Shown here: piece by piece, positions 214 to 19,654 of the stretch | Layout of the letters: the number at the start of each line of letters is the position of its first letter | Numbering within the stretch: position 1 is the stretch's first letter | IMG/VR virus record: IMGVR_UViG_3300042923_001459 | Coordinates: 1 to 64,000 of that record | Reading direction: 5' to 3' (one strand) | Source: a virus | DNA length: 64,000 nt | Position numbers and translations under genes: made by a program | Notes under the pieces: model-generated | What the model was told of the DNA's origin: nothing | The model's database searches: none | What the model saw: the letters and a program-made list of their open reading frames with translations, nothing else

Positions 214-495
214 TCAATTTCCTCCTAAAATTTTAGCTAAGTACCTATCATCTTCTCTCCAATAAGCAATTTCTGCATACACATCATTAAGATATTTTTG
301 TAAGCTATGTGATTGTCTAAAGTCACATTGAAACTTTTTTCCAAACACATAACCTTCTTTTTGTATTGAATTATGAGAAATTTCAACAAAACATCTATTT
401 TTGCAATTCAAGATATCTTTAGCAAAACTCGTAGTTCTCACTATATGTGATTCGCAAATAGGGCACTTCTTGTATTTAATCCAGTAATCGTTCAT
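214..495 (-). CDS. CPIC/YWKEN family protein, copy 1
   Basis: First of 21 paralogues in this region. Each has an N-terminal CPIC motif, a second C-x-N-x-C motif 11-23 residues later, a variable middle rich in beta-type residues, and a C-terminal helix close to YWKENDRYLxKIMG. The CxxC plus CxNxC pairs look like a four-cysteine zinc ribbon (inference). No known family was recognised. Here the cysteines are C11, C14, C31 and C35, and the end reads YWREDDRYLAKILGG. The start overlaps the stop of copy 2, which indicates translational coupling. Confidence 0.85.
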   Translation of the reverse strand: MNDYWIKYKKCPICESHIVRTTSFAKDILNCKNRCFVEISHNSIQKEGYVFGKKFQCDFRQSHSLQKYLNDVYAEIAYWREDDRYLAKILGGN

Positions 496-782
496 TAGTC
501 TACCCTCCCAAGTATCTCACCAACATATCTATCGTTTTCCTTATAATACAGGATTGCTTGCTCTATCAATTTAAAGGTTTCTTGATTTTTATCTGCTTCT
601 TCTATTGTAGTACAAATTCCTATACGAAAATAATTAGAAAAAACTCTAAAATTAAAATCGCCATAGCCATCGACAGATTCTACACTATAACAACTATTTT
701 TACATGTTCTGTCACCAAAAAATTTGTCCATTAATTTGTCATCACATATTGGACATTTTCCGTTTTTACAATAAATATCCAT
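495..782 (-). CDS. CPIC/YWKEN family protein, copy 2
   Basis: A 95-aa member with C10, C13, C27 and C31 plus the extra N-terminal Cys of the common MDIYCKxGKC start (C5). Its C-terminal signature is divergent: YYKENDRYVGEILG, with Tyr for the usual Trp. It is adjacent to copies 1 and 3 on both sides. Confidence 0.85.
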   Translation of the reverse strand: MDIYCKNGKCPICDDKLMDKFFGDRTCKNSCYSVESVDGYGDFNFRVFSNYFRIGICTTIEEADKNQETFKLIEQAILYYKENDRYVGEILGRVD

Positions 783-783
783 T

Positions 784-1020
784 TTATTCTCCTAATAATT
801 TAATGAGATATCTTTCATTAGTTCGCCAATATTTAATTTTTTCTGCTATTGTGTTTTCACTATTTTTATCACTAAGTATAATTTGATTAAAAATAATGAC
901 ATACCCGTCACGAATGGTAAAACAACCATTTTTACATTGTTTGGATTTTAGTTTACAATCACAAATTGGACAATCTTCTATTAAAAATTGCAACACATAA
1001 TTACCACGATAGATAACCAT
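784..1020 (-). CDS. CPIC/YWKEN family protein, copy 3 (short)
   Basis: At 78 aa this is the shortest member. It has C17, C20, C29 and C33, an additional C22, and the ending YWRTNERYLIKLLGE. The middle region is only about 30 residues, so the minimal family fold appears to need little more than the four cysteines and the C-terminal helix. Confidence 0.82.
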   Translation of the reverse strand: MVIYRGNYVLQFLIEDCPICDCKLKSKQCKNGCFTIRDGYVIIFNQIILSDKNSENTIAEKIKYWRTNERYLIKLLGE

Positions 1021-1021
1021 A

Positions 1022-1357
1022 TTACACTAACCTCTCTGCAATTAACGCGAGAAGTTCTTCTTGGGTATTCACAAAAATAGGTTCCTTTAAAAAATGATCC
1101 CTATCGTTATTATCAAATTCGCCAATATCATGTCTGATGTTGAAAGCATAACTATTTGAAACATAAGTATATACTACAGCTAAAATTCCAAACTTATCAT
1201 AAATGTAAATTTGCGCAGAATTAGCATTGTGTGTAATTTTAAGTCCGTCTCTTGTCAAATAGGACATAATAAGTGCATCTTTTATTTTTGGAACCATTTC
1301 TTTTGCCGTTTGAACTGCATTTATTTTTACATCATCTGGATATACAAAAGTTTTCAT
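1022..1357 (-). CDS. Hypothetical protein
   Basis: A 111-aa protein starting MKTFVYPDDVKINAVQTA. The ATG at 1357 is preceded by GGAGGAAAAT; an upstream TTG would overlap that site and is not used here. It lacks the CPIC motifs and no domain is recognised. It is the first gene of a short operon with copies 1-3, below a candidate promoter at about 1377-1399. Confidence 0.65.
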   Translation of the reverse strand: MKTFVYPDDVKINAVQTAKEMVPKIKDALIMSYLTRDGLKITHNANSAQIYIYDKFGILAVVYTYVSNSYAFNIRHDIGEFDNNDRDHFLKEPIFVNTQEELLALIAERLV

Positions 1358-1376
1358 ATTTTCCTCCAAATCAAAT

Positions 1377-1399
1377 AATTATATTATTATTATTTAGTG
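1377..1399 (-). promoter_or_regulatory. Candidate phage promoter (CTAAATA...ATATAAT type)
   Basis: Read on the minus strand the element is CACTAAATAATAATAATATAAT, just upstream of the 1357 gene. Very similar elements precede the operons starting near 6714, 11543 and 13874, which suggests a shared promoter class rather than chance AT richness. Confidence 0.4.
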
Positions 1400-1420
1400 A
1401 AGAAATGTTAAAAAGATGTC

Positions 1421-1453
1421 AAAAATAAAAGGATAGTCAGAATCTATCCTTTT
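1421..1453 (-). terminator. Rho-independent terminator
   Basis: Minus-strand hairpin AAAAGGATAG/CTATCCTTTT with a 6-nt loop, followed by a U-rich tract, directly after the glycosyltransferase stop codon. Confidence 0.7.
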
Positions 1454-1459
1454 AACAAT

Positions 1460-2476
1460 TTATTTAACTTCAGTTAGGTTTTTTAAAAAATCGCTTGTTG
1501 CTTTTTGCCATGTGTACTTAGACATTACATAGTTTCTGCAAGTAACTGAATCCTTATTTTTTAAAGCAATTTTAATTGCTTCAAGTAATGATTGATTAGT
1601 GCAACCAACATTTGAATTAATAATATCAACTATTTGTGGTACTGAAAATGCAGCAACTGGAACACCTGAAGCAAGTGATTCAATCATCACCAAACCAAAT
1701 GTATCAGTTTTACTAGGGAAACAAAATACCTCAGCACTAGCATAATATGTTGCTAGCTCTTCTCCTTTTTTAGGACCAACAAAAACAACATCTGGATAAG
1801 CCTCTTTAAATTCTTCCAATTGTGGACCATCACCAACTACCAATTTTTTAAGTCCAGGTTTAATTGATGATAAATCTAAACCAAGAAAAGCATCTAAATT
1901 CTTTTCACTTGAAACACGTCCAACATAAAGAACATACTCAAAATCAAATTCGTTACTTTTCTTTTCTGGTGAGAATAGTTCTGCATCAACACCTCTAGAC
2001 CAATATTTAACTCTTGATATACCATTTATCCGTAACTCTTTCTTAATTGATTTTGTTGCAACCATAACATTTGATGATCTTCTGTGAAACCATTTCATAT
2101 ATAAATAACCAACTCGCAATGGTACACCTAATTTATCTTTTGCGTACTCTGGAAATTTAGTATGATAAGCAGTGGTGAATTTCAATTTTTTATCTACACA
2201 ATATTTCCTAGCAGAAATTCCCAATGGACCTTCAGTTGCTATATGAATGTAATTGGGTTTGATGTTTTCCATAAGAACATTAAGTTTTTTAGTATGATGA
2301 TAGACAATAGAAATCTCTTTATAAAATGGCAATGGAAATGTATCAAACATACTTGGCTCAATTACAAAAACTTCAAATCCTCTATCTTGTAATTCCTTAA
2401 TTGTATTGTTTAGCGTATTAACAACACCGTTAATTTGAGGTGACCAAGCATCAGTGACAATAAGTATTCTATTCAT
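1460..2476 (-). CDS. GT4-family (GT-B) glycosyltransferase
   Basis: A 338-aa protein with the GT-B layout. The N-terminal Rossmann part opens with ILIVTDAWSPQINGVVNTL, the hinge has YVLYVGRVSSEKN, and the C-terminal donor site reads SKTDTFGLVMIESLASGVP, containing the E-x7-E motif of retaining GT4 enzymes. It resembles alpha-mannosyl, sulfoquinovosyl and Agt-type glycolipid transferases. It overlaps the metallophosphoesterase upstream by an ATGA-type junction, so the two are coupled. That pairing recalls PlcP-Agt modules, which cleave phospholipid to diacylglycerol and then glycosylate it. This function is inferred from family and neighbour only; modification of wall or teichoic-acid glycans is an alternative. 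Confidence 0.8.
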   Translation of the reverse strand: MNRILIVTDAWSPQINGVVNTLNNTIKELQDRGFEVFVIEPSMFDTFPLPFYKEISIVYHHTKKLNVLMENIKPNYIHIATEGPLGISARKYCVDKKLKFTTAYHTKFPEYAKDKLGVPLRVGYLYMKWFHRRSSNVMVATKSIKKELRINGISRVKYWSRGVDAELFSPEKKSNEFDFEYVLYVGRVSSEKNLDAFLGLDLSSIKPGLKKLVVGDGPQLEEFKEAYPDVVFVGPKKGEELATYYASAEVFCFPSKTDTFGLVMIESLASGVPVAAFSVPQIVDIINSNVGCTNQSLLEAIKIALKNKDSVTCRNYVMSKYTWQKATSDFLKNLTEVK

Positions 2477-3263
2477 TCTTTATGATCTCTCCGTTTGGTA
2501 ACAATTCTACTATTACATTATTATTATTCTCATCGTACCATCTAATGAGTTTTATTGTTCCATCCATTTCTTCAACTAAAACAGTACAAGACTCAACAAA
2601 ATCTCCATCATTCAAGTAATGCACACCATTAATGTTTCTAATTTCAGGATGATGAATATGTCCACAAACTACTCCATCATATCCGTTTTTCTTGCATTCA
2701 TAAGACAAGGCTTCTTCAAAACTTGATATAAAATTTACAGCTTCTTTAACTTTGAGTTTAATATTAGCACTTAAACTCCAATATCCTAAACCAAATTTTC
2801 TTCTAATCCAGTTAAGAGGAGCATTTAAATTTAAAAGCAATTCATAACCATAATCACCTAAAATTGCTACCCACTTAGCATATCTGGTTACGTTATCAAA
2901 TTCATCACCATGAATGATTAAAAATTTCTTTCCAGTTGCAGTAATGTGATCAGTTTTTTCACATACTTCAATATCTCCAACATCTAATGGACAATAGTTT
3001 CTAATTGCGTCATCATGATTACCTGGAATATATTTAATTATAGTATTGTTTTCACTTTTCTTTAGAATTTTTCGAATAATTTCATTATGATCTTTTGGCC
3101 AATAAACTTTTGATTTCAATCTCCACATATCAATAATGTCTCCAACTAAATACAAATATTCTGATTCTGTATTGTTCAAAAGCGATAATACACTATTTGA
3201 TTTGCTACGTTTAGTACCCAAATGTAAATCTGACATCCATATAGTACGATATTTCATTTTCAA
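2469..3263 (-). CDS. Calcineurin-like metallophosphoesterase (PlcP/LpxH-like)
   Basis: A 264-aa protein with the complete metal-ligand series: SDLHLG near residue 11, GDIIDMW, GNHDD, HGDEFD and GHIHHPE. This arrangement is typical of the LpxH/PlcP group. A Firmicutes phage has no lipid A substrate, so an LpxH role is unlikely. The coupled glycosyltransferase downstream favours a PlcP-like phospholipase C role in membrane lipid remodelling (inference). The start has a GGAGGAAA site. No signal peptide is seen, so it is probably cytoplasmic or membrane-associated. Confidence 0.8.
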   Translation of the reverse strand: MKMKYRTIWMSDLHLGTKRSKSNSVLSLLNNTESEYLYLVGDIIDMWRLKSKVYWPKDHNEIIRKILKKSENNTIIKYIPGNHDDAIRNYCPLDVGDIEVCEKTDHITATGKKFLIIHGDEFDNVTRYAKWVAILGDYGYELLLNLNAPLNWIRRKFGLGYWSLSANIKLKVKEAVNFISSFEEALSYECKKNGYDGVVCGHIHHPEIRNINGVHYLNDGDFVESCTVLVEEMDGTIKLIRWYDENNNNVIVELLPNGEIIKNE

Positions 3264-3349
3264 ATTTCCTCCTCATCATTCATATTAAAATAATAAGTTA
3301 AAGCAAGACTAGAATTAATAGGAAAAAAAAATTTAACATGTAGTTTACA

Positions 3350-3377
3350 AAATAAAAAGGATAGTTGAATTCTATCC
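3350..3377 (-). terminator. Terminator overlapping a stop codon
   Basis: Minus-strand hairpin GGATAGAATTCAACTATCC followed by TTTTTATTTT. It includes the stop codon of CPIC/YWKEN copy 4. Confidence 0.65.
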
Positions 3378-3677
3378 TCCGGTGATAATTTTTGCTAAAT
3401 AACGCTCATTTTGTTTCCAATATGTTATGTGTTCTAACACTGCATTTTCTAATTTTTCTAAAGACTGACTATTACTACTAAATCTTGCTACTCTTTTATC
3501 AAACACATAAGCATAATATTGACGACAAGTTTTTAAATCACTGTCTCTATATTTGTATGTTTCAAGTTTGTAACAACCATTTGTGCAAAATAATACGCCA
3601 GAATCAAAATCATCCAATCCATCAAGTTCAGATTCACATATAGGACAATTTCCATCCCCACAATAAATATCTATCAT
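3372..3677 (-). CDS. CPIC/YWKEN family protein, copy 4
   Basis: A 101-aa member starting MIDIYCGDGNCPICESEL, with C11, C14, C31 and C35. It ends YWKQNERYLAKIITGG. Its ATG overlaps the TGA of the 3674-4009 gene, so it is translated as the second gene of a two-gene operon, away from the larger clusters. Confidence 0.85.
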   Translation of the reverse strand: MIDIYCGDGNCPICESELDGLDDFDSGVLFCTNGCYKLETYKYRDSDLKTCRQYYAYVFDKRVARFSSNSQSLEKLENAVLEHITYWKQNERYLAKIITGG

Positions 3678-4009
3678 AACATCCTCTTAAAATTATTAAG
3701 TACTCTCCAAAAACTTGGACTATTTTTCTTTCTGTAAATGATGGGAAATTTATCATTAGAAGAATAAATACTATATTGTGTGAACTGACTATGCTTATTG
3801 CGGTGAATTGTTAGAGTGTATTTATGATCATGATTTTTTTTAAAATAACAATGCATTTGCATATCACTTGAATTATATGCGCAAGTAATATCATATCCCA
3901 CCATTATTGCTAATAATTTAATATTGTCAAATTCATCGGATAGATTTTGCGCAATATCTTCTTTAGCATCATCTAAAAGAAACTCTATTTTGTCAATAAC
4001 TAATTTCAT
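3674..4009 (-). CDS. Hypothetical protein
   Basis: A 111-aa protein beginning MKLVIDKIEFLLDDAKEDI; no family recognised. It is basic near the C-terminus (YRKKNSPSFWRVLNNFKRML). A sigma-A-like promoter lies upstream and a CPIC/YWKEN gene is coupled downstream. Confidence 0.6.
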   Translation of the reverse strand: MKLVIDKIEFLLDDAKEDIAQNLSDEFDNIKLLAIMVGYDITCAYNSSDMQMHCYFKKNHDHKYTLTIHRNKHSQFTQYSIYSSNDKFPIIYRKKNSPSFWRVLNNFKRML

Positions 4010-4031
4010 GATTACACCCCCTTGATATTTT

Positions 4032-4060
4032 ATTATAAATAATAATTAAATAAGTTTAAA
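4032..4060 (-). promoter_or_regulatory. Sigma-A-like promoter
   Basis: On the minus strand TTTAAA, 17 bp, TATAAT, upstream of the 4009 gene. It matches the TTTACA-17-TATAAT layout seen at 4712, 7440 and 10580. Confidence 0.5.
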
Positions 4061-4132
4061 CAAGATGTATATAGATTATCATAGGTGAAATAATAATCAT
4101 GTAAGGAAAAACTATAAAAGGAGCTGATTATT

Positions 4133-4414
4133 ATGACATACCAAAATCGTGGACCTGAAAACCCAAATCACCAAATTGACCCTAATAAACTTAAAATCAC
4201 TGCAGTACGTAAGGATGGTAGAGGTGATATCACAGAAGTTCAATTTCAAAATGGAGAAACAGCTTCAATAGAACAAGCAATTCAAATGGCTGAACAGGAT
4301 TTAATCGAAGATGTTAATACAGGCGCAACACGCGGAGAAGATAAACACAAAACCCTTCGTTCTTATCCTGATGGAGATCCTACCAACAACCTAGATAATT
4401 TACCTACATTCTAA
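4133..4414 (+). CDS. DUF3892-like small protein
   Basis: A 93-aa plus-strand gene with a strong AAAGGAG site. The core, LKITAVRKDGRGDITEVQF followed by GETASIEQAIQMAEQ and the tail KTLRSYPDGDP, matches my recollection of DUF3892, a small family of unknown function common in Bacillus-group genomes. It stands alone between minus-strand genes with its own terminator and may be a cargo gene acquired from a host. Confidence 0.7.
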   Translation: MTYQNRGPENPNHQIDPNKLKITAVRKDGRGDITEVQFQNGETASIEQAIQMAEQDLIEDVNTGATRGEDKHKTLRSYPDGDPTNNLDNLPTF

Positions 4415-4424
4415 TTTTAAAATT

Positions 4425-4456
4425 AAAAGAGTACATCATAACGATGTACTCTTTTT
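4425..4456. terminator. Bidirectional terminator
   Basis: AAAAGAGTACATC/GATGTACTCTTTT perfect stem with a 5-nt loop, A-tract on one side and T-tract on the other. It lies between the convergent genes at 4414 and 4469. Confidence 0.8.
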
Positions 4457-4468
4457 ATTTGTGTATAT

Positions 4469-4678
4469 TTAAATTTTGATATCTGTTAGTCTATATCTTG
4501 TTTCCTTCGTACTTACAGAACCATTAAATAGTACCAAATAACCCTTTACATAACCTTTTCTAGGAGAAATTTTTTCAAATACTACTTCTCTGCCATCTAA
4601 TTCTGGTTTTCTAAAATGGTTAGTGATTGTAATTTTACTACCTCTTTTGAGTGATGTTGCTTGATTTTCTGTAATCAT
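4469..4678 (-). CDS. Hypothetical small protein
   Basis: A 69-aa protein starting MITENQATSLKRGSKITITN; the ATG at 4678 has GAAGGGAG upstream. Short beta-rich sequence, possibly a small barrel, but no family is recognised. It is transcribed alone from a near-consensus promoter. Confidence 0.55.
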   Translation of the reverse strand: MITENQATSLKRGSKITITNHFRKPELDGREVVFEKISPRKGYVKGYLVLFNGSVSTKETRYRLTDIKI

Positions 4679-4711
4679 AACTTTTCTCCCTTCAATAAAT
4701 TGTATATGATT

Positions 4712-4740
4712 ATTATATAATAACATTTAAGAAATGTAAA
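4712..4740 (-). promoter_or_regulatory. Sigma-A promoter, TTTACA-17-TATAAT
   Basis: Read on the minus strand: -35 TTTACA (4735-4740), 17-bp spacer, -10 TATAAT (4712-4717). It lies 34 bp upstream of the 4678 start. Confidence 0.65.
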
Positions 4741-4745
4741 CAAAT

Positions 4746-5381
4746 TTATCTTTCAATAACTTCTGGATGAAATCCATCTTCTTGTACATAGCCGTCAATA
4801 GACCAAATACCTATTTTCTCGTTTTTAGCAAGTTGCTCATCTTTTTGATACTCAATTAAGTGAGGTGCATTCTTAATATAAACATAAGCAACTCTCGCAA
4901 ATCCATTTAAAATTAATTGTTCTTGAACAGATTTACCATCTATGTAAACATATGCTAAACCACGATTGTATTTGTCAAGACCAGATTGAATTTCTAAACC
5001 AACCTCTTTATTTAATAAAAGTTTTTTTATAAACTCACTCGCTTCAGGTCCAAATGGTTGAATGGGCGTACCGGGTTTTTTAGTTTCAGGAGTATCAACT
5101 AACAAAAGTCTAAATTGTGTTTTTACACCATTTAAATCTGTCTCAATAGTATCTCCATCAATTACCCTTGTTACTTTAGCTTTTGCTCTTGAATACGTTG
5201 TTTTTCCAATTGGCGATGATAACGGAATTTCTGGTAATATTGATTGTGGTTGCATAACATTTTGAGTAACAGTTGATTGCGTTGGTTGTGGAACTGGTGT
5301 AGGACTAATTTTTCTAGCATCATAACAACCAACAGTTAAAACCAACATAGCTGACATTAATCCAAATAAAATCTTTTTCAT
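4746..5381 (-). CDS. Thermonuclease (SNase) family lipoprotein
   Basis: A 211-aa protein. The N-terminus MKKILFGLMSAMLVLTVGC is a lipoprotein signal with a lipobox-like TVGC, so the enzyme is probably anchored outside the membrane. After a Pro/Gln linker comes an SNase domain (about 65-200). It shows VTRVIDGDTIETDL, the catalytic-type FRLLLVDTPE (Arg and Glu) and DKYNRGLAYVY (second Arg), followed by QEQLILNGFARV. The fold hydrolyses DNA and RNA with Ca2+. An exported nuclease on a phage genome could degrade competing or host-released DNA (inference). Confidence 0.85.
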   Translation of the reverse strand: MKKILFGLMSAMLVLTVGCYDARKISPTPVPQPTQSTVTQNVMQPQSILPEIPLSSPIGKTTYSRAKAKVTRVIDGDTIETDLNGVKTQFRLLLVDTPETKKPGTPIQPFGPEASEFIKKLLLNKEVGLEIQSGLDKYNRGLAYVYIDGKSVQEQLILNGFARVAYVYIKNAPHLIEYQKDEQLAKNEKIGIWSIDGYVQEDGFHPEVIER

Positions 5382-5399
5382 TTTAAAAACCCCTTTTTT

Positions 5400-5816: not shown

Positions 5817-5820
5817 AAAA

Positions 5821-6111
5821 TCATCTCCTTATTAATTCAGCTAGATACTTATCGTTTTCTTTCCAATAAACAATTTGATCAATGACTTCCTGTTCTTTAA
5901 GTATCTTGTCTATGTCGCGACTATTAAACCCAATGAATAATTTACCAAAGAAATACACATAATATTTATCTGTCCAATCCAATTGTTCATATTCATCAAT
6001 TTTATAGCAACCATTTAAACAAGTCTTTTTAAAAACAACAAATGGTGAAATATCCATTTTTGAATTACAAATAGGGCACAAACTGTCTTTACAATAAATG
6101 TCAATATTCAT
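5821..6111 (-). CDS. CPIC/YWKEN family protein, copy 5
   Basis: A 96-aa member from MNIDIYCKDSLCPIC; the ATG at 6111 follows AGGTGG and the stop of copy 6, so an in-frame ATG 10 codons upstream is unlikely. C12, C15, C31 and C35 are present, with the end YWKENDKYLAELIRR. Its last codons contain the AAGGAGA that serves the next gene. Confidence 0.82.
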   Translation of the reverse strand: MNIDIYCKDSLCPICNSKMDISPFVVFKKTCLNGCYKIDEYEQLDWTDKYYVYFFGKLFIGFNSRDIDKILKEQEVIDQIVYWKENDKYLAELIRR

Positions 6112-6133
6112 AGTCGCACCACCTAAAGTAATA

Positions 6134-6433
6134 TTATACACTGTTCATAATTTTCATTAAGTATCTGTCATTTTCTTTCCAATAATTAATATTGTCTATT
6201 AATTGATTAGTAGCCATATTTTGTATTGATTTATTAGACATAAGTGGCACTATGCGTTGGTGTTTAAACACCCAAAATCTATCTACATTGTATCCACCAT
6301 TTTGTTGATTGTCTACGTGGAATTCATAACAACCATTTTTACATTGTGAACATCTTCCCATTGGCACTTTGATTTTTTGTAATTCTGAATTACAAATAGG
6401 GCAGAGACCATCTTTACAATAAATATCAATCAT
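6134..6433 (-). CDS. CPIC/YWKEN family protein, copy 6
   Basis: A 99-aa member with C11, C14, C31 and C35, an extra C28, and a textbook YWKENDRYLMKIM end. Its start overlaps the stop of copy 7 (ATGA), making copies 7-6-5 a coupled triplet. Confidence 0.86.
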   Translation of the reverse strand: MIDIYCKDGLCPICNSELQKIKVPMGRCSQCKNGCYEFHVDNQQNGGYNVDRFWVFKHQRIVPLMSNKSIQNMATNQLIDNINYWKENDRYLMKIMNSV

Positions 6434-6714
6434 CTTGTATCACCCAAAATTCTTATCAAATATCTATCGTTTTCTTTCCAATAAGCAACAATGTCTTTAA
6501 ATATTTGTTCTTCCTTTTTATTAGTTTCGTCACTTGTATAGCCACGAAAAATAATTATTTTTACTTTTTTTAGATCTGGAGACATTAAGCAATGATTAAC
6601 AAAGAGGCCAAAATCTTCAGTCTCATAACAACCATTTATGCAAATGGTGCCTACCATTCCACTACGCTCATATAATAGTTCTTTTTCGCAAATTGGACAA
6701 TGATTAAATTTCAT
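6430..6714 (-). CDS. CPIC/YWKEN family protein, copy 7
   Basis: A 94-aa member that lacks the MIDIYCKD leader and begins MKFNHCPICEKEL (C6, C9, C25, C29). It ends YWKENDRYLIRILGDTR. It is first in its operon, below a CTAAATA-type promoter. Confidence 0.85.
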   Translation of the reverse strand: MKFNHCPICEKELLYERSGMVGTICINGCYETEDFGLFVNHCLMSPDLKKVKIIIFRGYTSDETNKKEEQIFKDIVAYWKENDRYLIRILGDTR

Positions 6715-8631: not shown

Positions 8632-8886
8632 CTATACTCCCATCATCTTTGTGAGATATCTTTCATCTTGCTTCCAATATTTAATTTCATCCATAATTTT
8701 AGCTTCATCTCTAAACATATTAAAGCAAACTTTATCTTCGTCAAAAAAGTGTATGAATACCTCATCAACTGTGAAACATCTATTCTCACAATAACTGAAA
8801 TCTACAAATCTACTTGGATCATTACATGTAATTTTACCATCACATATTGGACATTTATGTATGAATAGATTAAAAACTTTAACCAT
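8632..8886 (-). CDS. CPIC/YWKEN family protein, copy 9
   Basis: An 84-aa member starting MVKVFNLFIHKCPIC (C12, C15, C33, C37, extra C21) and ending YWKQDERYLTKMMGV. Its ATG overlaps the end of copy 10. Confidence 0.84.
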   Translation of the reverse strand: MVKVFNLFIHKCPICDGKITCNDPSRFVDFSYCENRCFTVDEVFIHFFDEDKVCFNMFRDEAKIMDEIKYWKQDERYLTKMMGV

Positions 8887-9958: not shown

Positions 9959-10219
9959 TTATACATCCTCCATCAGTTTTATTAAGTATCTATCATTTTC
10001 TTTCCAATAATTTATCTTTGCATCAACATCTCGATGATATTCTCTCCATTGTTCATTGTCGTATGTGTAGTGAGCGTGAAACTCTTCATAAAAAATAACT
10101 GTCATGGTTGAACCGTAAGCAAATTCATAATAGTAACATCTGTTCGGACAAGCTTCCGAGTTTTCATCGTTATCACCTGTTTGTTTCATTTTGGCTTCAC
10201 AAATTGGACATTTAGACAC
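9959..10219 (-). CDS. CPIC/YWKEN family protein, copy 12
   Basis: An 86-aa member read from the second GTG (10219), which has AGGTG six bases upstream; a GTG at 10228 is the alternative. C4, C7, C24 and C28, ending YWKENDRYLIKLMEDV. Its middle (AYGSTMTVIFYEEF, HYTYDNEQ) closely matches copy 18, about 8.5 kb away. Confidence 0.82.
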   Translation of the reverse strand: MSKCPICEAKMKQTGDNDENSEACPNRCYYYEFAYGSTMTVIFYEEFHAHYTYDNEQWREYHRDVDAKINYWKENDRYLIKLMEDV

Positions 10220-10220
10220 A

Positions 10221-10550
10221 TTATTCACCTACCATTATTTTTGCTAAGTATCTATCATTTGCCTTCCAATAAGACACTCGTTCTAAGAACTTTTTCATAT
10301 CTTCATCAAATTTCTTTTGTCTTTCGTAATCTCTTGGTTGAATTGGATGCCATTGTAAAAGCGCTTCTTTATATAACTCTAAGAGAAAATATTCTTCTCC
10401 AAAAATTTTAACACTTACATTTTCACCCTGTGGATCAACATCATATGTAACACAACCATTGCTACACCAAAGATCAGTAGCTCCATCATATTCCGAATTT
10501 AACTCCTTACTGCAAATAGGACAAACATGATAATTGTAATCAAATTTCAT
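10221..10550 (-). CDS. CPIC/YWKEN family protein, copy 13
   Basis: A 109-aa member from MKFDYNYHVCPIC (ATG at 10550 after GGTGATTAAA); C10, C13, C29 and C33 with Val after the last Cys instead of Tyr or Phe. It ends YWKANDRYLAKIMVGE. It heads a seven-gene minus-strand operon through to the PPP phosphatase. Confidence 0.84.
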   Translation of the reverse strand: MKFDYNYHVCPICSKELNSEYDGATDLWCSNGCVTYDVDPQGENVSVKIFGEEYFLLELYKEALLQWHPIQPRDYERQKKFDEDMKKFLERVSYWKANDRYLAKIMVGE

Positions 10551-10579
10551 TTTAATCACCGTCTTTAATTTTTTTTATT

Positions 10580-12698: not shown

Positions 12699-12722
12699 AA
12701 AAGGAGTAGATTTCTCCACTCC
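12699..12722 (-). terminator. Rho-independent terminator
   Basis: Minus strand GGAGTGGAGAAATCTACTCC then TTTTTATTTT, ending the operon of CPIC copies 16-15-14. Confidence 0.75.
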
Positions 12723-13015
12723 TAATCACTTATGATTTTTATCAAATATCTGTCGTTTTCTTTCCAATACTCAATGCGTTCTCTAATTTGAGTCTCTTGT
12801 TTTCTGTATTTTGTTTCTCCATCACGCTTAACTAGATTAAAATAACCTTTATTTCCATCTAAATTTACAATAATAGAAACATCGCTTCCGCTGACTTCAT
12901 TATATCCAAATGTATAACAACCGTTTACACAATTAGTTGCCATAGATTCAACATCAAACTTTACCCTACCATCGCATATTGGACATTTTTTATTCTGCAT
13001 ATAAATATCAATCAT
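12722..13015 (-). CDS. CPIC/YWKEN family protein, copy 14
   Basis: A 97-aa member whose leader MIDIYMQNKK lacks the usual fifth Cys; C11, C14, C29 and C33 remain. It ends YWKENDRYLIKIISD. Last gene of its operon. Confidence 0.85.
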   Translation of the reverse strand: MIDIYMQNKKCPICDGRVKFDVESMATNCVNGCYTFGYNEVSGSDVSIIVNLDGNKGYFNLVKRDGETKYRKQETQIRERIEYWKENDRYLIKIISD

Positions 13016-13017: not shown

Positions 13018-13302
13018 TTATTTTGACAATAGATTCAATAAATATCTATCATCTTGCCTCCAGTACTCAATTTTCTTCTTGATGCTTTTTCTATCTAAAT
13101 ACTTTACAATAAAATTGTCGTCATCCCAAATAGAAGCAACCTTTTCATCAAACACATAGTAATCTATATATCCATATCCACCATACGTGGTATAACAACC
13201 ATTTCTACAAATTTTATTGCTACCATTATACCATGTCATTTCAGATTCACAAACCGGACAACAGTACTCAAAATTCTTAAATTTTTTCTTATTCACCGAC
13301 AA
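13018..13302 (-). CDS. CPIC/YWKEN family protein, copy 15 (CPVC variant)
   Basis: A 94-aa member in which CPIC has become CPVC (C15, C18) with an adjacent C14; the second pair is C32 and C36. It ends YWRQDDRYLLNLLSK. The start is TTG at 13302 or GTG at 13296; both lie near GAGGATAA. Confidence 0.82.
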   Translation of the reverse strand: MSVNKKKFKNFEYCCPVCESEMTWYNGSNKICRNGCYTTYGGYGYIDYYVFDEKVASIWDDDNFIVKYLDRKSIKKKIEYWRQDDRYLLNLLSK

Positions 13303-13570
13303 TTATCCTCATTAAATATTTGTCATTCTCTTTCCAATAATTAATTTTGTCAATTATCTTTTTCTTTTGTGTCTTAGTACTAAAATAAGTTTCTTCCTCA
13401 TTATCTTCATCATAAAATATAGAAACAGCATACCCGTTTGAAATATCGCTCCTGTATATCTCATAACATTTGTTTACGCATACAGAATCAAATTTGTAAA
13501 AATCACTTACAACAATATTTGATTCGCATATTGGACATTTTCTATTTTTACAATAAATGTCAATTTCCAT
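13289..13570 (-). CDS. CPIC/YWKEN family protein, copy 16
   Basis: A 93-aa member from MEIDIYCKNRKCPIC (ATG at 13570 inside the end of the 13560 gene, after GAGAAGG). A 42-residue longer reading upstream would overlap that gene heavily and is rejected. C12, C15, C31 and C35. From the second Cys pair onwards it is strikingly similar to copy 17, on the far side of the tail-spike genes. Confidence 0.85.
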   Translation of the reverse strand: MEIDIYCKNRKCPICESNIVVSDFYKFDSVCVNKCYEIYRSDISNGYAVSIFYDEDNEEETYFSTKTQKKKIIDKINYWKENDKYLMRIIVGE

Positions 13571-13874
13571 CTTTCTCAACCTTCTCTTTAAAGGTGTCAC
13601 ATTGGCAATACTTACATCCACATGGATAGTTGTTTTCGTAACTATCAAAATGTCTATAATAAACATGATTACACTCACAAACTCTATTATCTCCATAATG
13701 CGGATTGTATTTTCTATTTTTACTTATCTCAATAGCACTAATATAAGGAGCTTCTTTTACATCTTCAACCAAATGTAAACAATCACATTCTTCCAAATCC
13801 TTCAACAACTGCTCTTTAGTTATATTCTTAAAATAATCGTCAAGTTGTTTCATTAGTATCTTTTCATCCCACAT
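13560..13874 (-). CDS. Cys/His-rich hypothetical protein
   Basis: A 104-aa protein from MWDEKILMKQLDDYF (ATG at 13874, nine bases after AAGGTGG; an ATG at 13880 is possible). The C-terminal half, CECNHVYYRHF then CGCKYCQC, can bind one or two metal ions. It lacks the CPIC/YWKEN signature. It heads the operon of copies 16-14. Confidence 0.6.
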   Translation of the reverse strand: MWDEKILMKQLDDYFKNITKEQLLKDLEECDCLHLVEDVKEAPYISAIEISKNRKYNPHYGDNRVCECNHVYYRHFDSYENNYPCGCKYCQCDTFKEKVEKDGN

Positions 13875-13894
13875 ATTCATCTACCACCTTTTAA

Positions 13895-13974: not shown

Positions 13975-14001
13975 GCAACTAGAAATAACATCATAGATAA
14001 T
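13973..14001 (+). promoter_or_regulatory. Promoter of first tail-spike gene
   Basis: TTGCAA (13973-13978), 17 bp, GATAAT (13996-14001), 18 bp before the start codon region. The second spike gene has TTGCAC with the same 17-bp spacing. Confidence 0.55.
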
Positions 14002-14019
14002 ATAAATAGAGGTGATTTT

Positions 14020-15951
14020 ATGTCGAAAAAAATTAAGTTCACCGGTTTTGATGCTGGAGTTAATGCGGAATCATTAACATTGTCTCTTTATCACAATAAT
14101 CAAGATGTTAAATTTTTAAAATTAACTGAAAATCAAGAAGTTACTATTTCTGAAGATGACTACAATAGTTTGCCTGAAAGCTTATTTGAAAATGGAACTA
14201 TAGTTTTAGTTGAAGATGTTAATTTAACAAAAGTAAGTATTGATATTGTAAATGTTAAAAGTTTTGGAGCAATTGGAGACGGAGTAAATGATGATTCAGA
14301 TGCTATATTAGCAACTTTTGATTATGCTTTCTCAAATAACAAGGTTGTTTATTTTCCCGCAGGCTCATTTATGATAAGCAAACCAATTGTTTTTAAAGCT
14401 CCTTTTTACGGTTTGTCAAATCATTCTAGTGCTATAAAAGCATTACCTTCTTTTGTAGGAAGACATGATTCAAATTGGGCAGCAACAACAGCATATGCAC
14501 TAAATAGCTATGTATTGTCAACAAATGGGAAAATTTACAAAGCAACTGTGGCTGGTACAAGTGGTTCAACAGCACCATCTCATGCAAGTGGAACATCAGG
14601 AGACGGAACAGTAACTTGGCAATATGTAGATTCATTCATGATTGATTTTTATCATCTAAACTACAAAGAACGTAAATACATTAAAGGAATTAACTTTAGT
14701 GCTCAAAATGTAGTTGGTTTAAAAATCTTTGGTAGTTCAAGTACTGGCGGTGGTGCAGGTAGTGCTCAAACTTTATTTGAAGATTTATGGTTTACAAATA
14801 CACATGCAAATGTTTATGCTGTTGGTGGGGATAGTGGCGGAGTAGTTGAAGCAGGTATGCTTACAGGCGGTACTTTTTTAAGATGTACATGGAACGGTTG
14901 CCCTAGAATGCTTAAAATAGGTAGTAACCAAGATGACACAGTGTTTATTGGTTGTCGTTTTGTTATGCCGGGTACTCCACCTGGTGGCTATACAATGGAA
15001 CTTCAAGGTCAAAACTGTAATTTTACTGATAGTTATATGTCCTTAACTACTGGTTGGTCAAGCGGTGGAATTAAAACATTGATTTTCGTTGGAAGTTTTC
15101 CTGTAAAATTTTCAGGATTATTTTTAGAATGTAACAGCGGTGATTTTACGCATGTATTCCATTGTGGAAATCCTAGCGCGGTACTTATTTTAGAAAATGT
15201 TGTTCATAGAATAGTTGGAAATTCACCATATGTTTCATTAATTCGCTCACAAGTTAATGGTTCTACAAACCCTGATGGAACAACTATAGATGTAAGAAAT
15301 ATTTATGCTTATACAGGAACAACAACTCCAGTTCTTGATGTTTACACAAACGGAATTGCTTCCCCTCAATCAATTACATTTAGATTCAGTGGTATTGATA
15401 TGTTCCCAAATATCATGCAATTCGCAACTGGTAGTGGTGGAGCTGATAACGCAAATGGTTCAGTTAAGTTATTCGGTAACTTTAAAGGAAAATCATATGA
15501 ACACGCAGTCAATTGGACAAATGGAGTAAATAAATTAATACCATTAAAGGCGGATGGTCGTTATGGAATGGTTACAAGTGAAAGTAATGTAACAATTGCT
15601 TCTCAAGTAAGTCCATCAATTTCAACCTTTACCTTACCATCAGCAGGTATGTGGCTAGTTGCTGTTACTGCAAAATTGAATGGAAGTAAAGATCATATGG
15701 GTAATACTTTGTATTTAGTTAATTACTATGATGCAACCAATGATACTTTAACTTCAGAGAATTTGGGTAATGGTTCAAAATTCTCAGCGGGAAGTGGATT
15801 TGGAGCTAACGTTTTGACCGTTAGTGCACCAACGACTGCAGGGGTACTAACTATTACAGCTGGATGGACAGATGGAGCAGCTCACTCGGTTGTTTTCTCG
15901 GTTCAAGCTAGAAAATTAACTTCCTATGATACAGGTTTTAACGGATACTAA
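14020..15951 (+). CDS. Tail spike / receptor-binding protein 1 (pectate-lyase beta-helix)
   Basis: A 643-aa protein. Residues 1-70 (MSKKIKFTGFDAGVNAES...) are nearly shared with the next gene and probably form the virion-attachment part. From about 78 comes a Pectate_lyase_3-type start, VKSFGAIGDGVNDDSDAIL then VVYFPAGSFMISKPI, leading into a long right-handed beta-helix. An inserted module near 155-205 (GKIYKATVAGTSGSTAP) resembles small carbohydrate-binding modules of phage tail proteins. It probably binds or cleaves a surface polysaccharide; the substrate cannot be read from sequence. It is on the plus strand, opposite to neighbours. Confidence 0.83.
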   Translation: MSKKIKFTGFDAGVNAESLTLSLYHNNQDVKFLKLTENQEVTISEDDYNSLPESLFENGTIVLVEDVNLTKVSIDIVNVKSFGAIGDGVNDDSDAILATFDYAFSNNKVVYFPAGSFMISKPIVFKAPFYGLSNHSSAIKALPSFVGRHDSNWAATTAYALNSYVLSTNGKIYKATVAGTSGSTAPSHASGTSGDGTVTWQYVDSFMIDFYHLNYKERKYIKGINFSAQNVVGLKIFGSSSTGGGAGSAQTLFEDLWFTNTHANVYAVGGDSGGVVEAGMLTGGTFLRCTWNGCPRMLKIGSNQDDTVFIGCRFVMPGTPPGGYTMELQGQNCNFTDSYMSLTTGWSSGGIKTLIFVGSFPVKFSGLFLECNSGDFTHVFHCGNPSAVLILENVVHRIVGNSPYVSLIRSQVNGSTNPDGTTIDVRNIYAYTGTTTPVLDVYTNGIASPQSITFRFSGIDMFPNIMQFATGSGGADNANGSVKLFGNFKGKSYEHAVNWTNGVNKLIPLKADGRYGMVTSESNVTIASQVSPSISTFTLPSAGMWLVAVTAKLNGSKDHMGNTLYLVNYYDATNDTLTSENLGNGSKFSAGSGFGANVLTVSAPTTAGVLTITAGWTDGAAHSVVFSVQARKLTSYDTGFNGY

Positions 15952-15970
15952 GATAAAAATATTTAAGGTA

Positions 15971-15989
15971 ACATGAAATATAAAATATT
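15971..15989 (+). repeat. Upstream 19-bp direct repeat, copy B
   Basis: Exact second copy of the element at 13956-13974, followed by a TTGCAC -35 box. It indicates that promoter and 5' part were duplicated together. Confidence 0.8.
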
Positions 15990-16017
15990 TGCACCGAGAA
16001 ATAGCATAATAAAATAT
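15989..16017 (+). promoter_or_regulatory. Promoter of second tail-spike gene
   Basis: TTGCAC (15989-15994), 17 bp, AAATAT (16012-16017). The -10 box is weaker than in copy 1, so expression may differ. Confidence 0.45.
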
Positions 16018-16034
16018 GAATAGAGGTGATTTTT

Positions 16035-17564
16035 ATGTCAAAAAAAATCAAATTTACAGGTTTTGATGCTGGTGTTAATGCTGAAACATTAATATTATCT
16101 TTGTATCCAAACAACGAGGATGTTAAGTTTCTAAAATTAATTGAAAATCAAGAAGTTACTATTTCCAACAGTGACTATAACAACTTACCAGAAAGTTTAT
16201 TTACAGATGGAACAATAGTTCTACTTGAAGACAAACTTTCAATAAATGCAAAAGAATTTAACGTTATAGGCGATGGAGTCGCAGACGATACGGTAGCTAT
16301 ACAAAACGCAATAAACGCAGCAACAAACGCTAAACTACCATTATTCTTACCAGCTGGTACTTACAAAATCACTGCTGGATTAACAGCCCCTGTAAGAAAC
16401 TTCATGATGTATGGAGCAGGCGGAACATTAACTAAAATCGTTCCAGATACTTATACATTCGATGTTTTAACTATTGGTACAGCTGCAGGTTCAGTTCCTA
16501 TTGGCTCATCAGGTTACCTAAAGGACATTTTCATTGAAGGTAAAACTACTTACTATTCAACAGATTACTGGACAGGAGTAAAATTAGTAAGTACGAGACA
16601 GTTCAATGTTGAAAACGTAACGGTTCATAAAATGTCAATTGGTTTCGATCTTATAAGTAATTGCTACGGAACCGTATTCAACAACTGTAGAGCTATGTTA
16701 GGAGCTGTCGGCGTAAACCTTAGATCAGGCCCAGAAAGTGGTAGTGATCTTAACTTCTATGGTGGTTGGTTTTCTGGAGTTGTTGCTGCTGTCCACATGA
16801 GTCCAGACGGTGGAGGATATCACTTCTTTGGTGGACAATTCTCTGGTGGAGCAAATTTATCTTCAGATCAAGACTTACTTGGTTCAATTATTATTGGTAA
16901 AGATTATATCACTGGAGCAGTTGGTATTACTCCAAACGTAATATTTGACGGTATTGATTTTGAAGGCGCAAAATATATGCACGCAATCAGATGTTTCGGT
17001 CAAACTACATTGACAATTCGTAATTGTAGCTTCTTACAAACTGATTCTTCAGCACCTGGATTATTAGCGGCTCCACTTAGTATTATTAAATCTGATAACG
17101 CTGTTCAATCTCAAATCATATTTGATAATAATGGAGTTAAAGGTTACTGGAAATCTGTTAAAGCGTTTGATATAACTGGTCAAGGAAGCGTATGTTATGT
17201 ACAGGAAACTGGAACAGTTCTTGAGTCTAATGTTAAATTCAATAACGTATCTGTTGGTAATGGAACTCCATTGATGGTTCAATCTCAATGCTCTTTAGGT
17301 TCTGCATTCTGGAGATCTGGTTCAGCACCAAAGGTATTGATGGGAAGTGTTATTTCTCGTATGACAAGCGGAAAATTAGAGAAATCATACGACTGGGGTA
17401 CAACTTGGAATACTGAAATTCCTTCTGGAACAACAGCAGCAAGACCTACTACCACAGCAATTATGTATGCAGGCTATATGTACTTTGATACAACTCTTGG
17501 AAAACCTATCTGGAGAAATACAGCTAATACTGGTTGGGTAGATTCTGCAGGTACAACAGTTTAA
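16035..17564 (+). CDS. Tail spike / receptor-binding protein 2 (pectate-lyase beta-helix)
   Basis: A 509-aa protein from the ATG at 16035 after AGAGGTGAT. The N-terminal ~68 residues are paralogous to spike 1. A different beta-helix follows (EFNVIGDGVADDTVAIQNAI, LFLPAGTYKITAGL). The C-terminus reads TTAARPTTTAIMYAGYMYFD and then GKPIWRNTANTGWVDSAG, a recurring phage tail C-terminal motif. It is probably an alternative receptor-binding protein on the same baseplate site. Confidence 0.83.
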   Translation: MSKKIKFTGFDAGVNAETLILSLYPNNEDVKFLKLIENQEVTISNSDYNNLPESLFTDGTIVLLEDKLSINAKEFNVIGDGVADDTVAIQNAINAATNAKLPLFLPAGTYKITAGLTAPVRNFMMYGAGGTLTKIVPDTYTFDVLTIGTAAGSVPIGSSGYLKDIFIEGKTTYYSTDYWTGVKLVSTRQFNVENVTVHKMSIGFDLISNCYGTVFNNCRAMLGAVGVNLRSGPESGSDLNFYGGWFSGVVAAVHMSPDGGGYHFFGGQFSGGANLSSDQDLLGSIIIGKDYITGAVGITPNVIFDGIDFEGAKYMHAIRCFGQTTLTIRNCSFLQTDSSAPGLLAAPLSIIKSDNAVQSQIIFDNNGVKGYWKSVKAFDITGQGSVCYVQETGTVLESNVKFNNVSVGNGTPLMVQSQCSLGSAFWRSGSAPKVLMGSVISRMTSGKLEKSYDWGTTWNTEIPSGTTAARPTTTAIMYAGYMYFDTTLGKPIWRNTANTGWVDSAGTTV

Positions 17565-17572
17565 TTTCTAAT

Positions 17573-17606
17573 AAAAAGAGTAGCTTAAAAGCTACTCTTT
17601 TTTTAT
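17573..17606 (+). terminator. Terminator after tail-spike genes
   Basis: AAAAAGAGTAGCTT-AA-AAGCTACTCTTTTTTT, a perfect stem with T-run; it can also work for the convergent gene at 17646. Confidence 0.85.
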
Positions 17607-17645
17607 GTCATTTTTAAATATCATTACATTTGTTTTTCTAGCTCT

Positions 17646-18113
17646 CTAAAATTCAACCTCTACATTAAACTTAACACCATTCTCATTGTAATAAAATACC
17701 TTAAAACCATCTAATCTAGCATCAATTTCTCTATAAGTTACATCTCTCGGCCATTCAAAACTATATTGACCAATTTCTTCCCATTTCTCGTAAGTGATTT
17801 CTTCGGGCCAATCTTCATCATAAGCTGGTTCGCCATCCATTGAACCAAGATATTCATGACCAAACCAAAGTTTATATTCGGCATGCTTAGAATAAGAATT
17901 ACGAGCTTCATTCCATGGCAGATTTTTAAACTTATGTAATGTTGCAAGTACTTCTTCAACTAATTCAATTTTCTCAGATGGAATTCTAACATACTCCTTA
18001 GTATAAGCATCCGCGTCACCATGCATAAATTTAACTTCAATTTCATACCTGTTTGTACTTTTAGGGGTATCTGACATTGTCCCAATTGTTAATTTCAATT
18101 TTATTCTCTCCAT
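17646..18113 (-). CDS. Hypothetical protein
   Basis: A 155-aa acidic protein with many aromatic residues (EEITYEKWEEIGQYSFEWPR). No family recognised. Monocistronic between a divergent AT-rich promoter region and the bidirectional terminator. It begins MERIKLKLTIGTM. Confidence 0.62.
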   Translation of the reverse strand: MERIKLKLTIGTMSDTPKSTNRYEIEVKFMHGDADAYTKEYVRIPSEKIELVEEVLATLHKFKNLPWNEARNSYSKHAEYKLWFGHEYLGSMDGEPAYDEDWPEEITYEKWEEIGQYSFEWPRDVTYREIDARLDGFKVFYYNENGVKFNVEVEF

Positions 18114-18168
18114 TCATTTTTAATGATAAATAATTATTATTTATTAAGTCCTATTTTTTAACAAAATA

Positions 18169-18190
18169 AAAAGAGAGTATTTTTACTCCC
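18169..18190 (-). terminator. Rho-independent terminator
   Basis: Minus strand GGGAGTAAAAATACTCTC then TTTTTATTTTG, overlapping the end of copy 17. Confidence 0.65.
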
Positions 18191-18461
18191 CAACAAGGAT
18201 TCTCATTAAGTATCTATCATTCTCTTTCCAATATTCAATCTTCTCAATTATCTTCACCATTTGCTTTTTAATACTAAAATAAGTTTCATCTTCATTGTCT
18301 CTATCATAAAATACAGAGATTGCATACACTCTCTCTTCACCATCCATATGTATCTCATAACATTTATTTTCACAATAGGCAGAAAGATCGCTAAGATGAA
18401 TGAGATCGTTTTCACATATTGGACATTTGTTATCCTTACAATAAACATCTATTTCACTCAT
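18183..18461 (-). CDS. CPIC/YWKEN family protein, copy 17
   Basis: A 92-aa member from MSEIDVYCKDNKCPIC (ATG at 18461 after AAGGTGGAG). C13, C16, C30 and C34. The segment with VFYDRDNEDETYFS through to YWKENDRYLMRILVGE pairs with copy 16, pointing to a recent duplication now split by the tail spikes. Confidence 0.85.
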   Translation of the reverse strand: MSEIDVYCKDNKCPICENDLIHLSDLSAYCENKCYEIHMDGEERVYAISVFYDRDNEDETYFSIKKQMVKIIEKIEYWKENDRYLMRILVGE

Positions 18462-18480
18462 TTTCTCCACCTTCTAGTCA

Positions 18481-18759
18481 TTAGTTAATAGTTAATATCT
18501 TGGTCAAGTATCTATCATTCTCTTTCCAATATTTAATAGTGTCTTCTATTTTATTGGATACATCAAAACACTGTTCTTTATTAAAATCATAGTGTTCATA
18601 AAATTCTTCTCCAAATATCAAAATTTTTGTAGTTCCATACGCATAATCTTCAGAATAGCAACCATTAACACATTTCTCATGAGACTCTTCTGTTCTTCCA
18701 TACTCATCACTATAAATATTATAATGAAGTTTTGAACCACAAATTGGACAATCTCGCAA
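18481..18759 (-). CDS. CPIC/YWKEN family protein, copy 18
   Basis: A 92-aa member with a TTG start after GGAGTGG: MRDCPICGSKL (C4, C7, C30, C34). The sequence AYGTTKILIFGEEFYEHYDF is close to copy 12. It ends YWKENDRYLTKILTIN. Confidence 0.85.
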   Translation of the reverse strand: MRDCPICGSKLHYNIYSDEYGRTEESHEKCVNGCYSEDYAYGTTKILIFGEEFYEHYDFNKEQCFDVSNKIEDTIKYWKENDRYLTKILTIN

Positions 18760-18760
18760 T

Positions 18761-19063
18761 TTAATCCACTCCCATAATCTTCATTAAATATCTATCATTC
18801 TTTCTCCAATAAATCAATCTTTCCATGAATCTAATTTGATGCATTGAGAATTCTTCTAAGTCTTCGTCATCAAATAATAATTTTTCTACGTTGTAAAGTA
18901 TTGGCTCATCAAAAATCTTAACATTGGCAAATGCAGTGTATCTATCAATAAAGCACCAAAAGCATTTATTAGGGCATGTTGAATAACCATACTTGTCTTC
19001 GTCAAACATCTTGCTTCTACATATTGGGCATTCTCCAAGTTTAAAATTTATTTTATTTCGCAT
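18761..19063 (-). CDS. CPIC/YWKEN family protein, copy 19
   Basis: A 100-aa member with C12, C15, C30 and C34, plus C37 giving CFWC after the second pair. Acidic middle (LLFDDEDLEEFS). It ends YWRKNDRYLMKIMGVD. Confidence 0.85.
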   Translation of the reverse strand: MRNKINFKLGECPICRSKMFDEDKYGYSTCPNKCFWCFIDRYTAFANVKIFDEPILYNVEKLLFDDEDLEEFSMHQIRFMERLIYWRKNDRYLMKIMGVD

Positions 19064-19077
19064 TTATATCACCTATT

Positions 19078-19359
19078 TTATACATTCATTATTTTTACTA
19101 AGTACCGATCGTTTTCTTTCCAAAAATTAATTTTCTCTTTAACTGCTATTTCCGTCTCTTTCTTATACTCATCATAATGACATCTAACCATTTCTTCAAA
19201 AATTAGAAAAGTATGAACTTCTGGTTCACCTAACCAATAAACATATTCATAACATTTATTTTTACAACAAATTCTATACAGATAACTTTCTTTTGTTTGC
19301 ATTTTAGATCCACATATGGGACAAATCTCTTTTTCACAATAAATATCTATTTTACTCAC
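19078..19359 (-). CDS. CPIC/YWKEN family protein, copy 20
   Basis: A 93-aa member with a GTG start overlapping the stop of copy 21. C13, C16, C33 and C37, with C32 giving CCKNKC. The signature Trp is preceded by Phe (FWKENDRYLVKIM), the only FW variant in the set. Confidence 0.84.
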   Translation of the reverse strand: MSKIDIYCEKEICPICGSKMQTKESYLYRICCKNKCYEYVYWLGEPEVHTFLIFEEMVRCHYDEYKKETEIAVKEKINFWKENDRYLVKIMNV

Positions 19360-19654
19360 CTGCCATTATCCCAATTAAATATCTATCATTTTCTTTCCAA
19401 TATCTGATTGTTTGTTCAATTTTATCTCTAGTTGCTTTATAACTAATAAAATAAGAATCATCATGAAATAAAGATATGTAAGGATCTTTATTGAAAAATC
19501 GAAAGACAGAATAGCTATTATTGTTTCCAATAAAATAACAGGCATTTTTACATTGAAACATTTTATCCGATAGATCCCAACCATCATATTGATCAAGTTC
19601 AATCAACAAACTATCACAAATAGGACATTTTCCATCACTACAATGAATATCCAT
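19352..19654 (-). CDS. CPIC/YWKEN family protein, copy 21
   Basis: A 100-aa member from MDIHCSDGKCPIC; C10, C13, C35 and C39. It ends YWKENDRYLIGIMAGE. First gene of the copy 21-17 run, immediately downstream of the broken endonuclease gene. Confidence 0.85.
   Translation of the reverse strand: MDIHCSDGKCPICDSLLIELDQYDGWDLSDKMFQCKNACYFIGNNNSYSVFRFFNKDPYISLFHDDSYFISYKATRDKIEQTIRYWKENDRYLIGIMAGE

What the first reader, a model, noticed from the sequence alone, without database searches (positions are those of the whole stretch)
214..19654. A 21-member tandem family of small CPIC / CxNxC / YWKENDRYL proteins
Twenty-one minus-strand genes, in runs of one to six and often overlapping, encode 78-110-aa proteins. 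All have CPxC near the N-terminus, C-x-N-x-C 11-23 residues later and a C-terminal helix close to YWKENDRYLxKIM. The ends are strongly conserved and the middles highly variable, as expected for a shared scaffold with diversifying target surfaces. The four cysteines look like a zinc ribbon. I know of no named family with this signature. An arsenal of host-takeover or anti-defence proteins with different targets is a reasonable hypothesis; dosage amplification of one function is the alternative.
Basis: partly seen in the sequence, partly recalled or inferred. Interest (0 to 1): 0.9.

Follow-up and report, generated by a model that had tools for sequence, protein, structure and literature searches.

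The report
Phage G-type tandem zinc-ribbon family
A giant bacterial virus related to Bacillus phage G carries 21 different copies of a small, probably zinc-binding protein next to its capsid gene; the family was already known from phage G (about 35 copies, function untested), so this is a second large set of a known but unexplained expansion, probably a toolkit for controlling the host.

Summary
Twenty-one intact minus-strand genes (214-19654) encode one family with four invariant cysteines (CPxC, CxNxC) and a C-terminal YWKENDRYL helix. The family is not new. The window is from a relative of Bacillus phage G (capsid protein 91%, terminase 78%, portal 76% identical), and phage G has 36 members. 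Hua et al. 2017 reported phage G's tandem array of >30 genes; Iyer et al. 2021 called the family a zinc ribbon in ~35 copies, possibly DNA-binding. It is phrog_4661/phrog_13559, function unknown. What is added here: a second large set, at the same place downstream of the capsid gene as phage G's gp32-gp46; about 30-40% identity between the two phages' members although core genes are mostly far more alike; a confident fold with no PDB match; conservation by protein-level selection; no shared basic charge, which weakens the DNA-binding idea; and absence from close relatives, one of which has a 32-copy array of an unrelated ~95-aa family instead. Best reading: adaptor-like accessory proteins with a shared docking end and diversified target surfaces. 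Targets unknown; confidence about 0.4.

The parts
214..495 (-). family member, 93 aa
495..782 (-). family member, 95 aa
784..1020 (-). family member, 78 aa, shortest spacer (8)
3372..3677 (-). family member, 101 aa; overlaps upstream gene 3674-4009 by 4 bases
3356..3380 (-). intrinsic terminator-like site right after member 3372
5821..6141 (-). family member, 106 aa from GTG; domain from about 6108
6134..6433 (-). family member, 99 aa; modelled by AlphaFold2 (pLDDT 90.4)
6430..6714 (-). family member, 94 aa
8315..8626 (-). family member, 103 aa, unusually basic (net +20)
8632..8886 (-). family member, 84 aa
8879..9211 (-). family member, 110 aa
9213..9551 (-). family member, 112 aa from TTG; domain about 90 aa
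9493..9966 (-). RNase H-like gene inside the run (not a member)
   Evidence: assignment by inspection only
9959..10228 (-). family member, 89 aa; groups with 18481 and phage G gp46
10221..10559 (-). family member, 112 aa
12702..12723 (-). intrinsic terminator-like site right after member 12722
12722..13015 (-). family member, 97 aa
13018..13302 (-). family member, 94 aa (CPVC)
13289..13696 (-). family member, ORF 135 aa, domain about 94 aa; closest paralogue of 18183 (60% identity)
18172..18191 (-). intrinsic terminator-like site right after member 18183
18183..18470 (-). family member, 95 aa
18481..18759 (-). family member, 92 aa; groups with 9959 and phage G gp46
18761..19063 (-). family member, 100 aa
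19078..19359 (-). family member, 93 aa
19352..19654 (-). family member, 100 aa
20747..21610 (-). major capsid protein, 91% identical to phage G gp27; anchors the locus

Best explanation
This is the phage G zinc-ribbon family, expanded and diversified in a second giant phage of the same group. SHOWN: one homologous family of about 36 genes in phage G and 21 here; four invariant Cys; a model of a three-stranded Cys-knuckle ribbon, a beta-hairpin and one long C-terminal helix; nine consecutive conserved residues in that helix; variable middles; intact copies under purifying selection; abutting genes in short runs ending in terminator-like sites; patchy presence among close relatives. INFERRED: the proteins are small cytoplasmic adaptors. 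The zinc knuckles hold the fold, the conserved C-terminal helix docks on one partner common to all copies (a host or phage machine, or another copy), and the variable hairpins bind a different target in each copy. Copies arise by duplication, diverge and are lost one by one, giving an accessory set for host takeover or counter-defence. The partner, the targets and expression timing are unknown.
For: Conservation of residues 84-92 (YWKENDRYL) on every face of the helix, while upstream in the same helix only packing positions are conserved, points to a shared binding site beyond folding. Ends and middle have similarly saturated synonymous change (pS 0.75 and 0.65) but very different pN (0.27 and 0.62), so the ends are kept by selection on protein, not by gene conversion. 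Mean identity among the window's members is about 31%, which argues against dosage. pI 4.6-10 and net charge -9 to +20 suggest different partners. Runs end in terminator-like sites and genes abut or overlap. The family is absent from 34 other G-like records, apart from one marginal partial match, as expected of accessory genes. In phage G, 28 copies also carry an extra ~106-aa N-domain. Unrelated tandem arrays of ~70-100-aa proteins with a conserved C-terminal motif occur in a sister phage (32 copies) and in coliphage 121Q (20 copies).
Against: No experiment, interaction or expression data exist for any member that I could find. No fold or sequence match to a known anti-defence or takeover protein. 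Surface exposure of the variable residues was not measured. A conserved helix could also be a homodimer interface or a nucleic-acid contact. Many close relatives live without the family.
Confidence: 0.4

Rival explanations
1. The proteins are DNA-binding: phage-specific transcription factors or structural DNA-binding proteins, each copy with its own site, as Iyer et al. 2021 suggested for phage G.
For: Zinc ribbons often bind DNA (general knowledge); published suggestion for the same family, and phage G also expands Myb-type factors.
Against: No common basic character: mean net charge -0.8 per 100 aa against -2.5 for other minus-strand ORFs of the record, p 0.46; middle regions mean -4.8; pI from 4.6. 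No conserved basic patch outside the zwitterionic helix motif.
Confidence: 0.2
2. Recombination-driven amplification with little adaptive meaning, or dosage of one function; diversity is drift.
For: Tandem duplication is visible in phage G: neighbours more alike than non-neighbours, p 0.0005; Hua et al. interpret the array as tandem duplication enlarging the genome.
Against: All 21 copies intact with 4/4 Cys and the motif kept at high divergence; dN/dS about 0.2-0.5 in the closest pairs; about 31% mean identity; neighbour effect weak in the window (p 0.07).
Confidence: 0.15
3. Virion or packaged internal proteins: the array follows the capsid gene and the proteins coat or condense the genome or capsid.
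For: Position directly downstream of the capsid gene in two phages.
Against: 28 of phage G's 36 copies are far away, at 352-371 kb; absent from relatives with 74-90% identical capsid protein; no common charge. The phage G virion mass-spectrometry paper was not available.
Confidence: 0.1

Closest known systems
Bacillus phage G zinc-ribbon expansion (gp32, gp34, gp35, gp37, gp46, gp166, gp206, gp410, gp444, gp447-451, gp453-474); Hua et al. 2017 and Iyer et al. 2021; phrog_4661, phrog_13559
   Same: Same homologous domain, Cys pattern, C-terminal motif, tandem organisation and, for gp32-gp46, the same place downstream of the capsid gene
   Different: Window members are all single-domain; 28 phage G members carry an extra ~106-aa N-terminal domain not found in the window's record. 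Best cross-phage identities are 30-41%, with few clear orthologues
IMGVR_UViG_3300042923_001771 (G037), phage-G-like contig with at least 3 members
   Same: Same family; two members at the contig start precede homologues of phage G gp50, gp52 and gp53, i.e. the same cluster
   Different: Only 3 found, the first cut by the contig end. May be another part of the same or a very near phage: complementary region, 4-mer distance 0.064
Lar restriction-alleviation zinc ribbon (PF14354)
   Same: CPxC-type zinc ribbon followed by a C-terminal helix (from general knowledge)
   Different: Only 4 of 55 members match, best E 0.0016, and the member scored is far below the curated cut-off; not a member
Coliphage 121Q tandem array (Hua et al. 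2017)
   Same: Tandem array of 63-97-aa proteins with one conserved C-terminal motif in a jumbo phage
   Different: Different sequence (LGTNYQE motif, no CPxC); no convincing family match in 121Q

Membership tests
Phage G ZnR family (phrog_4661 / phrog_13559) | Profile match of the domain | tested here: met
   21 of 21 match both PHROGs, best E 7.5e-24 and 1.4e-18; profile from the window finds 36 phage G genes including gp32 = YP_009015343.1, the published example
Phage G ZnR family (phrog_4661 / phrog_13559) | Lineage-specific expansion in tandem, in a Donellivirus-type phage | tested here: met
   21 copies; capsid, terminase and portal proteins 91, 78 and 76% identical to phage G
Phage G ZnR family (phrog_4661 / phrog_13559) | N-terminal ~106-aa domain of phrog_4661's longer members | tested here: not met
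   Absent from all 21; no convincing stand-alone copy in the record. Single-domain phage G members also lack it, so it does not define the family
Zinc ribbon (fold class) | Two Cys knuckles and a three-stranded beta ribbon | tested here: met
   Four Cys invariant in 55 of 55; model strands 17-23, 26-31, 36-41 around Cys 11/14 and 31/35, pLDDT 90.4. The second knuckle is Cx3C, not the usual Cx2C
Zinc ribbon (fold class) | Binds zinc | not testable with these tools
   No metal in the model; needs biochemistry
Zinc ribbon (fold class) | Structural match to a solved zinc ribbon | tested here: not met
   No PDB match with E below 0.3; the hairpin and long helix make up much of the model
Lar restriction alleviation (PF14354) | Profile score above curated cut-off | tested here: not met
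   4 of 55 members, best E 0.0016; 14.8 bits against a cut-off of 28.6 for the member scored
Known defence or counter-defence protein | Match in PADLOC or NCBIfam | tested here: not met
   Only sporadic weak matches, none recurrent

The most novel reading that the evidence does not exclude
Giant phages repeatedly and independently evolve arsenals built the same way: tens of tandem ~100-aa proteins that keep one C-terminal docking motif and vary the rest, from unrelated starting folds (zinc ribbon in phage G and the window, the WIES family in sister phage G003, the LGTNYQE family in coliphage 121Q), each copy aimed at a different host or defence target.
Probability: 0.25. Interest if true: 0.85.

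Novelty: new member of a known kind. Interest (0 to 1): 0.5.

Why it matters
The phage G expansion has been on record since 2017 as an oddity of one phage. A second phage with 21 strongly diverged copies, plus relatives without the family, turns it into a comparative system: the invariant positions point to the shared function and the variable ones to specificity. If the adaptor reading is right, each array is a ready-made panel of host-directed proteins, and the unrelated arrays in G003 and 121Q suggest a general giant-phage strategy.

Tried and rejected
Named-family searches: Pfam, NCBIfam and PADLOC gave only weak generic zinc-ribbon matches. PDB sequence and fold searches gave nothing convincing. 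Lar membership: tested and not met. Stand-alone version of phage G's N-domain in the window's record: not found (best own_68046 at 5% probability). Homology between the G003 array and this family: rejected (hhalign 0.5%). Family in 121Q or 201phi2-1: no convincing match; the weak fold matches to 201phi2-1 and Phabio proteins (TM about 0.4) were not pursued. Promoter scan: 115 sites against 116 expected, uninformative. dN/dS: too saturated for a test of positive selection. Tree: only 4 of 52 branches well supported. Bacterial genomes: no relative (980 species, but one motif pattern only). Plasmids: none. Virion proteomics of phage G: paper not held. The first regex script was faulty and was replaced.

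Full report
OBSERVATION. The ORF list and alignment confirm 21 minus-strand genes from 214 to 19654. A profile of the family searched against the whole 108,591-base record finds those 21 and no other place up to E=10. Every copy keeps four cysteines (CPxC, CxNxC), the Asn of CxNxC and the Tyr of the C-terminal motif. The spacer between the two Cys pairs is 8-22 residues. Within runs, genes abut or overlap by up to 14 bases, and three runs end exactly in terminator-like hairpins (3380-3356, 12723-12702, 18191-18172; 12 such sites in the region against 5.9 expected).

WHOSE GENOME. The record is a relative of Bacillus phage G (Donellivirus gee): capsid protein 91%, sigma factor 80%, terminase 78%, portal 76% identical, and colinear. 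The array begins right after the capsid gene and a gp28 remnant. In phage G the published family example gp32, and gp34, gp35, gp37 and gp46, lie in the same place.

THE FAMILY IS KNOWN. All 21 proteins match phrog_4661 and phrog_13559. A profile built from the window finds 36 genes in phage G: seven single-domain, gp206, and 28 at 352-371 kb with a shared N-terminal domain of about 106 aa. Hua et al. [quoted passage not shown] Iyer et al. 2021 (PMC7824862) wrote that phage G has an unprecedented expansion (~35 copies) of a zinc ribbon that might act as transcription factors or structural DNA-binding proteins. That the 2017 phage G array is this family is inferred: it is the only family of that size among phage G's paralogues. 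No function was tested in the passages I read.

DISTRIBUTION. Scans of 2.9 million viral contigs found the family only in phage G and in a 175-kb phage-G-like contig, G037. G037 has three members, two of them at its start next to homologues of phage G gp50, gp52 and gp53, and one before the RarA gene where phage G has none. G037 covers a complementary part of the genome and has nearly the window's composition (4-mer distance 0.064, against 0.18 between window and phage G), so it may be the same or a very near phage. Of 36 records with a related capsid protein, phage G has 36 copies; the other records have none, apart from one marginal partial match (G010, E 9.8e-4, positions 4-50) that I do not count. 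The nearest one (G002, capsid 90%) keeps flanking genes of the window's array without the family. Fragmentary records limit this, and each scan relies on short exact peptide patterns.

EVOLUTION. Core genes are mostly far closer to phage G (many 50-91% identical) than the family members, whose best matches are 30-41%. The tree is poorly resolved, yet one well-supported group joins window copies 9959 and 18481 with phage G gp46, so at least one lineage predates the split. Synonymous change is near saturation at both ends and middle (pS 0.75, 0.65) while amino-acid change is low at the ends and high in the middle (pN 0.27, 0.62). The conserved ends are therefore held by selection on the protein rather than by gene conversion. 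The closest pairs have dN/dS about 0.2-0.5; positive selection is not shown.

STRUCTURE. The AlphaFold2 model of member 6134 is confident (pLDDT 90.4, pTM 0.80): strands 17-23, 26-31 and 36-41 around Cys 11/14 and 31/35, a hairpin 50-63, and one helix 68-98. No solved structure matches; the only good matches are phage G proteins (TM 0.72-0.81). Within the helix, mainly packing positions are conserved before residue 84, but 84-92 (YWKENDRYL) is conserved on all faces. I infer a functional contact shared by all copies.

FUNCTION. A shared docking helix plus variable surfaces best fits a set of adaptors with different targets. DNA binding is weakened by the lack of any common basic character. Dosage is weakened by about 31% mean identity, and drift by the intact, selected copies. 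A virion role is weakened by the distant main cluster in phage G. None is excluded, and targets are unknown.

PARALLELS. A sister phage, G003 (capsid 87%), lacks the family but has 32 tandem copies of an unrelated ~95-aa family ending in 'iYFknKkdAkkAkeWlESlLixkKl' (hhalign 0.5%; no recurrent Pfam or PHROG match). Coliphage 121Q has 20 copies of a 63-97-aa family with 'LGTNYQExYVxxYIxxL'. The recurrence suggests a general feature of giant phages, but the functional analogy is inference.

VERDICT. Confirmed observation; new member (second large set) of a known, functionally unexplained family; interpretation partly supported.

Noticed in passing
L122/L123 (G003 = IMGVR_UViG_3300039191_000589), 6681-36202: 32 tandem copies of an unrelated ~95-aa family with conserved C-terminal motif AkkAkeWlESlLixkKl in a sister phage-G-like virus; no recurrent Pfam or PHROG match.
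   Followed up: partly
Coliphage 121Q (NC_025447) 155706-175244 and 160771-180229: 20 copies of a 63-97-aa LGTNYQE-motif family, with neighbouring 9-copy (LFQEALVFDKKY) and 7-copy (EEYYFQQS) families.
   Followed up: partly
G000 72491-73494 (minus strand, outside the window; in L009): Four tandem small CxxC...CxxC proteins (71-106 aa) with a shared ending EYIExKKLANxLG: another small zinc-protein array in the same phage.
   Followed up: no
window 19670-20636: Homologue of phage G gp28 (about 310 aa, homing-endonuclease-like) is split into two short ORFs here, apparently a decaying gene.
   Followed up: no
window 14020-17564 (plus strand): Two large beta-helix-like tail-spike proteins sharing an N-terminal domain (MSKKIKFTGFDAG) sit in the middle of the array on the opposite strand; G037 has three relatives.
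   Followed up: no
window minus-strand runs, e.g. 18481-19654: The ribosome-binding site of the next gene often lies in the previous gene's last codons (ATGGGAG...), so part of the C-terminal sequence may serve translational coupling.
   Followed up: no
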